From NCBI RefSeq assembly GCF_900104775.1, contig NZ_FNSA01000003.1:496001-560000 (forward strand): a stretch of 64,000 nucleotides of DNA, in the 5' to 3' direction. A program made the translations under genes and the position numbers. This stretch comes from Tsukamurella tyrosinosolvens. GTDB taxonomy: Bacteria > Actinomycetota > Actinomycetes > Mycobacteriales > Mycobacteriaceae. Each line of letters begins with the position of its first letter. Position 1 is the stretch's first letter. Under the pieces are notes generated by a model that made no database searches, was not told the origin of the DNA, and was given only the letters and a program-made list of their open reading frames with translations. This document shows positions 9,254 to 23,131 of the stretch, one piece after another.

Positions 9254-11041
9254 ATGGACCCCATGACGAACCTCAGCGAGACCGGCGGCAACCCCCGGAT
9301 CGGCACGGCGCTCACCCCCGGTGCCACGAAGGCGCTGATGCTGGGTTCGGGCGAGCTGGGCAAGGAGGTGGTGATCGCCTTCCAGCGCCTCGGCGTCGAG
9401 ACGATCGCCGTCGACCGCTACGCGAACGCGCCCGCGATGCAGGTCGCGCACCGCAGCCACGTCATCGACATGACCGATGCGGCCGAGGTGCGGCGCGTCA
9501 TCGAGGAGGAGAAGCCCGACTTCGTGGTCCCCGAGATCGAGGCGCTCGCCACGGACGCCCTGGTCGCCATCGACGAGGAGGGCCTCGCCGAGGTCATCCC
9601 GACGGCGCGGGCCGTCGCGCTGACGATGAACCGCGAGGGCATCCGCAAGCTCGCGGCGGAGGAGCTGGGCCTGCCGTGCTCGCCGTACGCCTTCGCCTCG
9701 TCGCTCGACGAGGTGCGGACCGCGTCCCGCGAGGTCGGTTTCCCGTGCGTCATCAAGCCGGTGATGTCGAGCTCGGGCAAGGGCCAGTCGGTGGTCCGGT
9801 CGGTCGAGGAGCTCGACGGTGCCTGGGAGTACGCCGTGGAGGGCGGTCGCGTCCGCAACGAGCGGGTGATCGTCGAGGGTTTCGTCGACTTCGACTACGA
9901 GATCACGCTGCTCACGGTGCGCGTCTACGACGCCGAGCGCGGCAAGGTGGTCACCCGCTTCTGCGAGCCCATCGGGCACCGGCAGTCGGACGGCGACTAC
10001 GTCGAGTCCTGGCAGCCGCAGGCGATGAGCCAGGCCGCCTACGACGCGGCGACCTCCGTCGCGGGCCGCATCACCACCGCCCTCGGCGACGGCGGCACCG
10101 GCGGCCGCGGGGTCTTCGGGGTCGAGCTCTTCGTCAAGGGCGACGACGTCTACTTCTCCGAGGTCTCGCCCCGACCGCACGACACCGGCCTGGTGACCCT
10201 GGGCTCGCAGCGGCTCTCCGAGTTCGAGCTGCACGCCCGCGCGATCCTCGGCCTGCCCGTGGACACCTCGCTCATGTCGCCCGCGGCGTCCGCGGTGATC
10301 TACGGGACGAAGGACAGCAGCTCGGTCGCCTTCGACAGCGTCACGCGTGCGCTCGACGTACCCGAGAGCGACCTGCGCCTGTTCGGCAAGCCGGAGGGGT
10401 ACGCCAAGCGTCGGCTCGGCGTCGCGGTCGCGACCGCCGACACCGTCGAGGTGGCGCGCGCCAACGCCGCGGAGGCGGCGGGCCGGGTGGTCGTCGTCGA
10501 CAGCGAGGATCCCGTCCAGCAGGGCGCGCCGGAGACGACCGCGGTGCCGATCCAGCGCCCGCAGCCGCCGCTCGACGATCCGTCCACCCGCGCGATGCCT
10601 GCGCAGCGCCCTGCCCAGCCCCCGGTTCAGCAGCCTCCGGCGCAACAGATCCCGGTGCAGAAGGCGCCCCCGCAGTCCGCGCCGCCCCAGGCCGGCCCGG
10701 CGCAGGGCCCGGCGGGACAGCCGCCGGTCCAGCCCGCACCGCCCACGGCGGCGTCGCCCGTCGTACCGCCCGCCCCGCCGACCGCGGCCTCGCCGGTCGT
10801 GCCGCCGCAGCAGGGCTCGCCGCGCGTGGCCCCGCCCCAGGCCGGCCCCGGCGAGCCGATCGCCCCGACGAGCATGCACCCCGTCGCCGCCCGCCGGCCC
10901 GCGCCGCCGCGCCCGATCCAGCCCGCCCCGCGGCCCGCGACGGGCGAGACCGCGACGCGGCCGAAGACGCCGAAGACCGAGGAGTACGACCACAATCCGC
11001 CCACCTCGCTGGGCCTGCCCCCGCAGCGCCCGCAGGACTAG
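9254..11041 (+). CDS. purT: Formate-dependent GAR transformylase PurT with long Pro/Gln-rich tail
   Basis: Residues 1 to about 415 are a complete PurT of the ATP-grasp superfamily, which uses formate and ATP to make formyl-GAR in purine synthesis. Signatures are [20 protein letters not shown], the [21 protein letters not shown] block, [18 protein letters not shown] (ATP-binding), [27 protein letters not shown] and [15 protein letters not shown]. After residue ~415 the protein continues for some 180 residues of Pro/Gln/Ala-rich sequence ending LPPQRPQD, which is absent from ordinary PurT of roughly 390-420 residues. The start may be ATG 9254 or ATG 9263; the latter has CAGAAT seven bases upstream, fitting a leaderless start. 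The 3' end overlaps the converging erm gene by 4 bases. Confidence 0.95.
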
Positions 11042-11814
11042 GTAGCGGACTGGGCGAAACGCTCGAAGGCCTCCACCCAGGCCTCCGCGGAGAGGTCGCG
11101 GGGGAGCGGTGTGCCGCGGTGGCCGCGCCCGGCGGCCCACCTCCGTGCCTCCGCCCGACGGTGCCGCGGCGCCACGCCCGCCAGGACCTCGGGCAGCCCG
11201 TGGCCGCGGCCGGTGAAGACGGCATGGACGAAGGCGGCGTAGTCGCGTCGCCGAGCCGGGGGAATCAGTGGCGCGTCGCGGCGGGTGATCGTCAGCAGGC
11301 CCGCGTCCACGGAGGGGCGAGGGGTGAAGGCGGAGGCCGGGATCCGTCCCGCGAGTCCGAAGTCGTACCAGGGCGACCACTGCGCAGTCATCATCGTCGC
11401 TCCGCCGACGCCGGCCCGCCGTCGCGCGACCTCCCACTGCACAATGAGGACCGCCCCGGTCCAGTGCGGCGCGTGCAGCAGCTTGCGCAGCACGGCGGTG
11501 GTCAGGTGGAAGGGCAGATTCCCCACCACCGCATGAGGTTCCGCCGGTAGCCGGTGTCGGAGGAAGTCGCCGTGCACGACGGTCACCGCCGGCAGTCGCC
11601 CACGCAGGCGCCGGGCGTGGCCGCCGTCGATCTCGACGGCGGTGACGGGGCGGCCCAGTCGGAGGAGCGGATCGGTCAAGGCGCCTGCGCCGGGGCCGAT
11701 CTCGATGATGGGCCCGTCGGTGTGGCGGGCGAGGTCGACGAAGCGGCCGATGACGGCACCGTCGGTGAGGAAGTTCTGGCCGTGCTCGTGACGGCCCCCG
11801 TGATGGGTGGGCAT
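11038..11814 (-). CDS. erm: 23S rRNA adenine N6-methyltransferase, Erm family
   Basis: This 258-residue SAM-dependent methyltransferase of the Erm/KsgA group dimethylates A2058 of 23S rRNA and so gives macrolide-lincosamide-streptogramin B resistance. The start HEHGQNFL is the Erm N-terminal signature. [11 protein letters not shown] is the SAM-binding motif [15 protein letters not shown] holds the acidic ribose ligand, VHGDFL follows, and [11 protein letters not shown] is the catalytic N-[LI]-P-[FY] motif. [11 protein letters not shown] is also typical. KsgA is unlikely because of the short C-terminus and the Erm-type opening. The GGAG site lies about nine bases before ATG 11814 and is partly buried in a hairpin. 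A leader peptide and two further hairpins upstream suggest induction by attenuation. Confidence 0.9.
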
Positions 11815-11826
11815 GAAGGGAGTTCT

Positions 11827-11886
11827 CCGGGTCGAGGATCACCCGGGCAGCGCGAATCGCCGCCCAGCGGAAGGATGCTGGGGCGG
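11827..11886 (-). promoter_or_regulatory. Hairpins in the erm leader, possible attenuator
   Basis: Two stems lie between the leader peptide and erm. Arms 11827-11832/11841-11846 (CCGGGT/ACCCGG) abut and partly cover the GGAG ribosome-binding site. Arms 11860-11868/11877-11886 pair with one bulged base. A third stem lies inside the leader reading frame (11946-11965). Alternating pairing of this kind is the usual design for macrolide-induced Erm translation; here the function is inferred. Confidence 0.5.
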
Positions 11887-11920
11887 TGAAGCCGAGATGG
11901 TGTGGTGGGCTCCGCCGCCG

Positions 11921-11983
11921 CTACGCGCGGCCGCGGTCCACGACTGCCGCCGCTGCTGCGGCGGCTGCTGCCGAAGAACTCAC
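11921..11983 (-). CDS. Putative erm leader peptide (20 residues)
   Basis: A short reading frame begins GTG 11983 and ends TAG 11921, giving S3-A9-VVDRGRA after the initiator. It ends 106 bases before erm on the same strand. A TAGGGT -10 element sits seven bases before the GTG with no Shine-Dalgarno, so it would be the first thing translated on a leaderless transcript. The poly-Ala codons coincide with a perfect 8-bp hairpin (arms 11946-11953 and 11958-11965, loop TGCT). The AAVV tract recalls the IAVV stalling motif of some Erm leader peptides, but this resemblance is short. No protein evidence exists, so the call rests on position, promoter and structure. Confidence 0.5.
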   Translation of the reverse strand: MSSSAAAAAAAAAVVDRGRA

Positions 11984-11990
11984 GAGGTGC

Positions 11991-12028
11991 ACCCTAGGTG
12001 CCGGAGCGGCGGGATGCCAGCGGATTAT
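11991..12028 (-). promoter_or_regulatory. Putative WhiB7-type promoter of erm leader
   Basis: On the minus strand, CTGGCA (12020-12015) and TAGGGT (11996-11991) are 18 bases apart, and an A/T stretch (ATAAT) lies three bases upstream of the -35 hexamer. An A/T block just before the -35 is the known hallmark of WhiB7-activated resistance promoters in mycobacteria. Part of the A/T block is the stop codon of the upstream gene, so the match could be partly chance. Confidence 0.45.
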
Positions 12029-12747
12029 CCGCGCTGCAGCCAGTAGGCCTGCGACTTGATCCGGTCCTTGGGCAGGCCGAAGTCGCGCTTCGCGGCCTTG
12101 GTGATCTCGCGCGTCGCCTTGGTCTCGGCGGCGACGAACAGGAAGGCGTCCGAACCGATTCCGCCGCCGATCACGGTGGAGACCAGTGTGGCGCCGCGGT
12201 TCTCGCGCGGCACCCAGGTGACGGCCTCGCTCTGCACGGGCAGCTCCCGCTCGGCGTCGTGCTGGTACTCCAGGTACACGCGACAGGGGGCCTGCGCGGT
12301 GCCGAGGATGCTGTTGATGGCGGGGATCGAGGCGGCGTCGCCCACGAGCACGTACTCCGACGGTGCCGGCTCCTCCGGGACCGTCAGGTCGGCGCCCATC
12401 ATGGTGGCGGCGATGCGGTCGCCGGGCTCGGCGTCGAGGGCCCAGCGCGGCGCGGGACCCTCGTGCATCGCGAACTCGATCGTGAACTCCGAGCCCTCCG
12501 GCGCGACGATCGTGTAGCCGCGCTGCACGAGCGTCCCCTCGTCCGCATCGGTGGTGGCAGCACCGCTCTTCGGCACCCACAGGCGCACCCACATGGTCGG
12601 GAACCACGGGTTCTCCTGCAGGAAGTCGCCGCCGTCGAAACGGATCCGGTGGTAGTGCTCGCTGACGGCCTCCGTCGACAGCACCGTGAAAACGTAGTCG
12701 TCCGCCCGCATCGCCTTGAGGATCAGGCCGGTCACTCCTCTACCCAT
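12025..12747 (-). CDS. Siderophore-interacting protein (ferric-siderophore reductase, ViuB-like)
   Basis: This 240-residue flavin- and NAD(P)H-binding protein of the SIP family removes iron from imported ferric siderophores in the cytosol. Typical features are the N-terminal β-barrel with HYHRIRFDGGDF and RGYTIVAPEGSEFTIEFAMH, the FAD-contact stretch GPAPRWALDAEPGDRI, and the nucleotide fold VLVGDAASIPAINSIL. The C-terminal VAAETKATREITK...YWLQRG is also family-typical. TAGCCT lies seven bases before the ATG, suggesting a leaderless message. An IdeR/DtxR-like box overlaps this -10, so iron should repress it. It is divergent from the BacA-like ABC transporter and lies directly upstream of the erm leader. 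Confidence 0.9.
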   Translation of the reverse strand: MGRGVTGLILKAMRADDYVFTVLSTEAVSEHYHRIRFDGGDFLQENPWFPTMWVRLWVPKSGAATTDADEGTLVQRGYTIVAPEGSEFTIEFAMHEGPAPRWALDAEPGDRIAATMMGADLTVPEEPAPSEYVLVGDAASIPAINSILGTAQAPCRVYLEYQHDAERELPVQSEAVTWVPRENRGATLVSTVIGGGIGSDAFLFVAAETKATREITKAAKRDFGLPKDRIKSQAYWLQRG

Positions 12748-12766
12748 GAAGCTGAGGCTACCCTAA
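12748..12766 (-). promoter_or_regulatory. IdeR/DtxR-like iron box
   Basis: The minus-strand 19-mer begins TTAGGGTAGCCTCAGC and matches about 14 of 19 positions of the DtxR/IdeR consensus TTAGGTTAGGCTAACCTAA. It covers the predicted -10 (TAGCCT) of the siderophore-interacting protein gene, so iron-loaded IdeR would block transcription. Confidence 0.6.
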
Positions 12767-12861
12767 TCAACCCGATCATCGCGAGCACATGCCACGTGCG
12801 CTGGGGCGATACGGGTTAAGCTTCCTCAATTTTTCACACGGTCCAGCAGAGGAGCCGCGGG

Positions 12862-23010: not shown

Positions 23011-23131
23011 AGGTCATGAGTGCCAGTGACAAGCCCCGGCTCGCTGGTCGGCAACCCTCCTCCGCGGTGGGGTGCTCCGGGTGACGACCTGGCCGTGCCG
23101 AACCGTGCACGGCAAGCGCGGATTCGCGGCA
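23011..23131 (+). ncRNA. SAM-IV riboswitch
   Basis: The stretch beginning AGGTCATGAGTGCCAG, continuing through AAGCCCCGGCTCGCTGG, CGGCAACCCTCC, GGTGGGGTGC and CCGGGTGACGACC, and ending GGCAAGCGCGG reproduces the known SAM-IV core of actinobacteria almost base for base, as I remember it. A GCCGTGC/GCACGGC hairpin forms the 3' part. SAM binding should turn off the downstream genes. A hairpin CGGCAC/GTGCCG between 23127 and 23152 is a candidate expression platform close to the ribosome-binding site of the following gene. Confidence 0.92.

What the first reader, a model, noticed from the sequence alone, without database searches (positions are those of the whole stretch)
11815..12028. erm preceded by a leaderless 20-residue peptide, three hairpins and a WhiB7-like promoter
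Upstream of erm lie, in order: an A/T block three bases before CTGGCA, an 18-base spacer, TAGGGT, seven bases, then a GTG opening a peptide S3-A9-VVDRGRA. Its Ala codons form a perfect 8-bp hairpin. Two further stems follow, the last covering part of the erm ribosome-binding site. This combines the WhiB7 promoter design of mycobacterial resistance genes with translational attenuation as known from other Erm leaders, including an AAVV tract similar to the IAVV stall motif.
Basis: partly seen in the sequence, partly recalled or inferred. Interest (0 to 1): 0.75.

Follow-up and report, generated by a model that had tools for sequence, protein, structure and literature searches.

The report
Macrolide-sensing leader of a resistance gene
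In front of a macrolide-resistance gene sits a short stretch that seems to sense the drug twice, once through a stress regulator and once through a tiny peptide on which drug-bound ribosomes should stop, and the same layout stands before most of the related actinobacterial genes examined.

Summary
The gene is an Erm methyltransferase of a Tsukamurella. All 11 erm-bearing genomes of 16 in the genus keep the leader, which changes length only by whole codons. The design is widespread: 92 of 103 non-redundant actinobacterial Erm upstreams have TANNNT, 6-8 nt, then a short ORF ending in [RK]x[RK]; shuffles give 0.4. The AT block before -35 matches the published WhiB7 motif and occurs in 59 of 64 promoters from WhiB7-bearing hosts against 10 of 28 from others, with few independent events. 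Folding does not show that one ribosome stalled at RGR frees it. Transcription start, WhiB7 dependence and stalling are untested. A new variant of Erm translational attenuation.

The parts
11038..11814 (-). erm gene, 258 aa, Erm(46)/(55)/(38)-like 23S rRNA (A2058) methyltransferase
   Evidence: NCBIfam broad Erm model 265.5 bits over cut-off 212; best named model Erm46 389 bits, under its cut-off of 503; nearest solved structure by sequence Erm(38), E 4.5e-87
12024..12028 (-). A/T block ATAAT, 3 nt upstream of -35; candidate WhiB7 AT-hook site; overlaps the upstream gene's stop codon
   Evidence: AT peak at this place over 92 promoters; 59 of 64 against 10 of 28 promoters from hosts with and without WhiB7
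12015..12020 (-). -35-like CTGGCA
   Evidence: relatives
11991..11996 (-). -10 TAGGGT (TANNNT), 18-nt spacer
11921..11983 (-). leader ORF MSSSAAAAAAAAAVVDRGRA, inferred to start at the transcript's first base
   Evidence: frame conserved in 11 of 11 Tsukamurella erm loci; 7 nt from the -10; no Shine-Dalgarno 4-mer within 20 nt upstream here and in 83 of 92 representatives
11927..11935 (-). Arg-Gly-Arg codons (CGC GGC CGC), candidate +X+ stall site; the 3' part is the 5' arm of the first switch stem
   Evidence: identical in 11 of 11 Tsukamurella; [RK]x[RK] in 92 of 103
11946..11965 (-). 8-bp hairpin inside the Ala codons
   Evidence: Ala tract absent in L009 and L010
11917..11931 (-). stem S0:S1 (GCCGC 11931-11927 with GCGGC 11921-11917), off-state candidate
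11882..11919 (-). stem S1:S2 (11919-11908 with 11893-11882), alternative to S0:S1
11860..11886 (-). stem S2:S3 (11886-11877 with 11868-11860), alternative to S1:S2 and S3:S4
11843..11867 (-). stem S3:S4 (11867-11862 with 11848-11843)
11827..11846 (-). stem S4:S5 (11846-11841 with 11832-11827), covers GG of the Shine-Dalgarno
11825..11828 (-). erm Shine-Dalgarno GGAG
11973..11981 (-). 5' arm of the long-range lock GAGUUCUUC (leader Ser codons AGT TCT TCG)
   Evidence: pairs with 11828-11820; 8 of 11 Tsukamurella at p<=0.02 against shuffles
11820..11828 (-). 3' arm of the lock GGAGAACUC, contains the whole Shine-Dalgarno

Best explanation
A two-layer macrolide switch. Layer 1 (inferred): drug-stressed cells raise WhiB7, which binds the AT block beside -35 through its AT hook and recruits sigma-A RNA polymerase. 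Layer 2 (inferred): transcription starts at the leader's GTG, so the leader is translated as a leaderless mRNA. A macrolide-bound ribosome stalls at Arg-Gly-Arg. It covers S0, so the paired array shifts from S0:S1, S2:S3, S4:S5 towards S1:S2, S3:S4, which loosens the erm Shine-Dalgarno. In the long-leader Tsukamurella species a second ribosome at the leader start must also peel off the transcript's 5' end, which otherwise pairs with the Shine-Dalgarno. Shown by sequence: promoter layout, conserved reading frame, conserved RxR, alternative stems, 5' complementarity. Not shown: start site, stalling, drug or WhiB7 response.
For: Layout in 92 of 103 non-redundant Erm loci against 0.4 in shuffles, 55 of 60 among loci fetched after the rule was formed. 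Spacing 7 nt in 69, 6 in 16, 8 in 7. No Shine-Dalgarno 4-mer in 83 of 92. AT block, WhiB7 literature, co-occurrence with WhiB7. Leader frame selection. Neighbouring segments pair better than shuffles: S0S1 in 22, S1S2 32, S2S3 17, S3S4 33, S4S5 7 of 45; seven non-neighbouring controls 1 to 5 of 45. Both exclusive pairings are 86-88% standard pairs over 42 sequences, 27-64% when slid. Relative L122 leader MTASMRLRTA matches ErmDL MTHSM-RLR in register.
Against: Equilibrium folding: one ribosome footprint at RxR changes mean Shine-Dalgarno accessibility only from 0.12 to 0.14 (up in 22, down in 14 of 72 mRNAs), and from 0.00-0.02 to 0.01-0.03 in the eight locked Tsukamurella leaders; covering the first 18 nt alone gives 0.23-0.43 there, nearly what stall plus cover gives (0.28-0.46), so the model gives the RGR stall little part. 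In Tsukamurella S3:S4 and S4:S5 coexist in the ensemble. S4:S5 is weak (7 of 45). For erythromycin the RLR triplet of ErmDL was largely dispensable (PMC8298421). The WhiB7/box link has only 5 supported independent pairs; the box goes the same way in 3.0-3.6 of them on average and is not significant. Covariation is modest: pairs changed on both sides 3 and 2, reached by 64 and 99 of 500 shuffles. By my reading, 1 of 4 named plasmid loci (erm(55)) has the AT block at the set place.
Confidence: 0.6

Rival explanations
1. Same switch, but the ribosome stalls at Ala-Val-Val with Asp/Glu in the A site, as recalled for ErmAL1 (IAVV-E), not at RGR.
For: Short Tsukamurella leaders MGASAAVVD and MGAAVAVVE put VV-D/E at residues 7-9, the register recalled for ErmAL1. 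[IV]AV occurs in 11 of 97 leaders against 2.5 by shuffling. Of the 5 ORFs without RxR, L055 has IAVV, L129 IAVS and L046 SVV; the Erm(46) leader L207 (NIAVTEFRR) also lacks RxR. A footprint there would also cover S0.
Against: 79 of 97 leaders have RxR without an [IVA]AV[VTISDFE] motif, 13 have both, 2 that motif alone. CGC GGC CGC is identical in 11 of 11 Tsukamurella, although that can also serve base pairing.
Confidence: 0.2
2. Transcription attenuation: the stems act on a terminator rather than on the ribosome-binding site, as for whiB7.
For: The whiB7 gene itself is held to be controlled that way (PMC10727445 and PMC4128351, passages).
Against: No terminator-like site in 11000-12800; the last stem and the lock overlap the Shine-Dalgarno.
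Confidence: 0.05
3. Only the WhiB7 promoter matters; the peptide and stems are by-products of G+C-rich sequence.
For: No stall shown; folding model does not open the site.
Against: Frame conservation; 28 of the 92 RxR leaders are in hosts where no WhiB7 was found; shuffles give 0.4.
Confidence: 0.05
4. Drug-stalled ribosomes stabilise the mRNA, and the stems only tune decay.
For: mRNA stabilisation is reported for erm(B); only titles in a reference list were seen.
Against: Alternative neighbouring stems and 5' complementarity to the Shine-Dalgarno point to control of initiation.
Confidence: 0.05

Closest known systems
ErmDL-ermD leader, +X+ arrest
   Same: Short leader with R-x-R before a methyltransferase gene; L122 leader MTASMRLRTA matches MTHSM-RLR in register
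   Different: 83 of 92 actinobacterial leaders have no Shine-Dalgarno 4-mer and all 92 begin 6-8 nt after a -10 (by the search rule 5-8); longer Ala-rich N-terminus in most Tsukamurella
ErmAL1 / IAVV-type leaders (recalled)
   Same: AVV followed by D/E, in register in the 13-codon Tsukamurella leaders
   Different: RGR follows; stall not tested
erm(X) leader (Corynebacterium plasmids)
   Same: Leader MLISGTAFLRLRTNR in the same layout (L210); translational attenuation proposed in print (PMC3350403, passages)
   Different: -10 is TATAAT in 7 non-redundant loci, with the AT block in 3 of these 7
WhiB7-dependent promoters, including erm(41)
   Same: AT-rich block 3 bp upstream of -35 (PMC10727445; PMC3905903; passages)
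   Different: Here followed by a leader peptide and stems; WhiB7 dependence not tested in Tsukamurella
whiB7 uORF attenuator
   Same: Drug-sensing uORF; the same genome has whiB7 (L115)
   Different: The whiB7 uORF has a Shine-Dalgarno and is linked to a terminator (PMC4128351, passages)

Membership tests
Erm 23S rRNA methyltransferases | Score over the curated cut-off of the broad Erm model | tested here: met
   265.5 bits against 212
Named Erm class (Erm46, Erm55, Erm38) | Score over that class's cut-off | tested here: not met
   389/503, 339/525, 306/800 bits: an Erm outside these named classes
Erm translational attenuators | Conserved leader ORF upstream of erm | tested here: met
Erm translational attenuators | Mutually exclusive stems, one state covering the erm Shine-Dalgarno | tested here: inconclusive
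   Neighbouring pairs above shuffles; Shine-Dalgarno release on a stall not reproduced by folding
Erm translational attenuators | Macrolide-dependent ribosome stall in the leader | not testable with these tools
   needs toeprinting
+X+ (Arg/Lys-x-Arg/Lys) arrest leaders | [RK]x[RK] in the leader | tested here: met
   RGR in 11 of 11 Tsukamurella, 92 of 103 in the wider set
WhiB7 regulon | AT-rich block 3 bp before -35 | tested here: met
WhiB7 regulon | whiB7 with AT hook in the genome | tested here: met
   L115, PRGRPRK
WhiB7 regulon | Expression depends on WhiB7 | not testable with these tools
   needs a whiB7 deletion and expression data
Leaderless mRNAs | Transcript starts at the leader's start codon | not testable with these tools
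   Only the -10 spacing and the lack of a Shine-Dalgarno support it

The most novel reading that the evidence does not exclude
Across the class Actinomycetes, Erm is ancestrally controlled by a leaderless Arg-x-Arg stall peptide coupled to a WhiB7 promoter. In Tsukamurella the free 5' end of the leaderless transcript doubles as the anti-Shine-Dalgarno of erm, so that release needs two ribosomes, one stalled at Arg-Gly-Arg and one queued at the start, the alanine tract being the room for the second.
Probability: 0.25. Interest if true: 0.8.

Novelty: new variant of a known kind. Interest (0 to 1): 0.6.

Why it matters
A 2024 survey over many phyla concluded that erm uORFs are not universally conserved and may have arisen independently (PMC11264731, section 15). 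Within the actinobacterial Erm loci examined here a uORF of one layout is nearly universal (92 of 103) once leaderless ORFs are allowed. The tool uORF4u includes a Shine-Dalgarno search within 20 nt for prokaryotes (PMC10219788, passages), which could overlook leaders of this kind. If true, macrolide resistance in many actinobacteria is gated twice by the same drug, and the link between WhiB7, leaderless translation and stall peptides becomes directly testable.

Tried and rejected
Polyalanine hairpin as a core element: rejected, the tract is absent in the two 13-codon leaders. Simple single-ribosome release of the Shine-Dalgarno: not reproduced by folding. RNAalifold on the 54-sequence alignment gave no structure, so pairings were counted by named segments; a first segment script handled only 14 sequences because of a faulty motif and was repeated (then 50). 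5' lock beyond the genus: outside Tsukamurella 10 of 61 at p<=0.05; and in the cross-species control only 8 of 72 mRNAs fit their own ribosome-binding site better than 95% of foreign ones, so it is claimed for the genus only. Intrinsic terminator: none.

Rows dropped: 3 of 165 loci with under 300 nt upstream, then 162 reduced to 103 by likeness; the folding set of 72 holds 67 of the 92 representatives, those with a clear erm start and Shine-Dalgarno, plus 5 further Tsukamurella; 54 of these 72 went on after length and likeness filters; 9 of the 54 were not handled in the segment test; 12 of the 54 I left out of alignment A1 as unlike in layout. In one search three box definitions were tried; all are reported. 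The layout rule was formed; its test on later loci is.

Searches of print that did not show this layout: (listings with abstract starts; open-access library only, so earlier description cannot be excluded).

Full report
What is there. On the minus strand of the window an erm gene (11814-11038) is preceded by 210 bases that hold, in order, ATAAT, CCG, CTGGCA, an 18-base spacer, TAGGGT, seven bases and the ORF MSSSAAAAAAAAAVVDRGRA. The gene scores over the cut-off of the broad Erm model and under that of the named classes; the closest solved structure by sequence is Erm(38). The genus is Tsukamurella: named loci L031-L036 have the same upstreams as genus members found by the genome search. The upstream gene, ending YWLQRG (YWLDRG in L007), is in the same place in 11 of 11 Tsukamurella loci; here its stop codon lies inside the A/T block.

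Is it more than chance. In the genus, 11 of 16 genomes hold erm, one of them with the gene in two pieces in different frames (L013); 11 of 11 have the leader. Leader lengths are 13, 19, 20, 21 and 22 codons, whole-codon steps only, while the post-leader stretch takes 99, 100, 102, 103, 105 and 106 nt. Synonymous against non-synonymous codon-pair differences are 116/84 in frame, 38/149 and 2/186 out of frame. VV, D/E and RGR are kept in 11 of 11. The rows are related, so these are counts, not independent events.

How wide. Of 165 Erm-like loci (150 bits or more) 162 had 300 nt upstream; 103 remained after removing those 85% alike. Of these, 97 have a TANNNT, 5-8 nt, ATG/GTG ORF of 6-45 codons, and in 92 it ends in [RK]x[RK]; dinucleotide shuffles give 3.9 and 0.4. 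The 11 misses are 6 without a qualifying ORF and 5 ORFs without RxR: four with PW in place of it and one with MRPL. On loci fetched after the rule was formed it is 55 of 60. In 83 of 92 there is no Shine-Dalgarno 4-mer in the 20 nt before the leader. Of 22 more distant Erm-like loci (100-150 bits, likeness not reduced, no shuffles run) 13 have such an ORF with [RK]x[RK] somewhere in it. On named plasmids, Erm(55) MGITSVAVIRIRRF, Erm(36) MGSPSIAVTRFRRF and Erm(X) MLISGTAFLRLRTNR fit; Erm(46) MGNTNIAVTEFRRF keeps the layout but lacks RxR.

Promoter. Over 92 promoters A+T is 0.57-0.83 at -32 to -29 from the -10 and about 0.3 in most flanking positions. A published ChIP-seq study found an AT-rich sequence 3 bp upstream of -35 in all 56 WhiB7 regions, erm41 among its sites (PMC10727445, passages); deletion of the AT region stopped WhiB7 activation of its own promoter in vitro (PMC3905903, passages). 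The window's genome has a whiB7 with AT hook (L115; a uORF with a Shine-Dalgarno is my reading of that output). I asked whether the box follows WhiB7. Taking a hit of 70 bits or more as presence (weakest counted 81.7, other WhiB proteins 50 or less), a run of three A/T at -33 to -28 occurs in 59 of 64 promoters from hosts with WhiB7 and 10 of 28 from hosts without (Fisher 4e-8); AAA or ATA gives 55 of 64 against 3 of 28; four A/T 55 of 64 against 8 of 28. Limits: 35 of the genomes came without completeness figures, each cluster is judged by one host, and some of these genes are mobile. On an Erm tree (quick method) WhiB7 status changes 8 times; in 5 supported independent pairs the box goes the same way in 3.0-3.6 on average and the opposite way in 0.0 (at least one printed pairing holds one opposite pair); this cannot reach significance. 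By my reading only the erm(55) locus of four named plasmid loci has the block at the set place. Hosts in which no WhiB7 was found keep the leader, so the two layers look separable.

Stall site. Arg-Leu-Arg arrest in ErmDL is shown with telithromycin, Leu in the P site, and is less critical with erythromycin (PMC8298421, passages). RGR here would put Gly18 in the P site. AVV is a second candidate: [IV]AV is seen in 11 of 97 leaders against a mean of 2.5 and a maximum of 10 in 2000 shuffles; the likeness to ErmAL1 is recalled, not from a call. Three of the five ORFs without RxR carry IAVV, IAVS or SVV, so the two motifs may replace each other.

RNA. Six segments follow one another: S0 (Arg codons), S1 (just after the stop), S2, S3, S4 and S5 (Shine-Dalgarno). 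Neighbouring segments pair better than 95% of shuffles in 22, 32, 17, 33 and 7 of 45 sequences (S0S1, S1S2, S2S3, S3S4, S4S5); seven non-neighbouring combinations in 1, 1, 1, 2, 2, 2 and 5. Named pairings counted on 42 sequences: 87.9% and 86.3% standard pairs for the two exclusive sets, 31-54% and 27-64% when slid. Against re-dealt partners the share paired is reached by 11 and 0 of 500, the covariation score by 8 and 1 of 500, but the number of pairs changed on both sides (3 and 2) by 64 and 99 of 500: modest covariation. The parity fits a classical attenuator: S0:S1, S2:S3, S4:S5 off; S1:S2, S3:S4 on.

Results against. With the ribosome modelled as a 31-nt block at RxR, Shine-Dalgarno accessibility rises only from 0.12 to 0.14 on average, up in 22 and down in 14 of 72. 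Removing S0 raises S1:S2 in 35 of 45 (1 falls) but frees the Shine-Dalgarno in only 11 (4 lose).

The 5' lock. The minimum-energy fold of the window's mRNA pairs its first bases with the erm ribosome-binding site. GAGUUCUUC (leader codons AGT TCT TCG) pairs with GGAGAACUC, the whole Shine-Dalgarno included; 8 of 11 Tsukamurella reach p<=0.02 against shuffles, namely 8 of the 9 long leaders (not L007) and neither of the two short ones; six of the eight are close relatives. AGT and TCT are 4 and 1 of 158 Ser codons in seven window genes, yet both stand in all nine long leaders; a preference of leaderless starts for A/U could also explain this. Outside the genus the pairing is only weakly enriched (10 of 61 at p<=0.05), and 8 of 72 mRNAs beat 95% of foreign ribosome-binding sites. 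Predicted accessibility in the eight locked species is 0.00-0.02 free, 0.01-0.03 with one ribosome at RGR, 0.23-0.43 if only the first 18 nt are covered, 0.28-0.46 if stall and 5' cover are combined. Hence the bold reading: a ribosome at the start, queued behind the stalled one, is needed, and the Ala tract makes room for it. The fold model itself gives the RGR stall little share.

Known or new. The erm(X) leader and its proposed attenuation are in print (PMC3350403, passages). A survey of erm upstream regions found no universal uORF pattern (PMC11264731, passages, section 15). I found no description of this leaderless layout joined to the WhiB7 box in ten searches, but many subscription papers are not held. 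It works like an Erm attenuator behind a WhiB7 promoter; membership in the first is met on anatomy only, in the second on motif only.

Noticed in passing
window 23012-23124 (+): SAM-IV riboswitch, 106.4 bits.
   Followed up: no
window 9254-11041 (+): purT with a long Pro/Gln-rich C-terminal tail; its stop codon overlaps the erm stop codon in convergent orientation.
   Followed up: no
L073 and its cluster (24 loci): Erm(X)-like copies whose representative leader reads MLISGSVFMRPLTSR and has no RxR.
   Followed up: partly
L076, L084, L102, L105-L108: erm(X)-type leaders behind a consensus TATAAT; AT block in 3 of 7.
   Followed up: partly
L046, L055, L090, L129: Leaders with ARPW or KPW in place of RxR, three of them with SVV, IAVV or IAVS before it.
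   Followed up: partly
L013: erm in two pieces in different frames in one Tsukamurella, while promoter and leader are kept.
   Followed up: no
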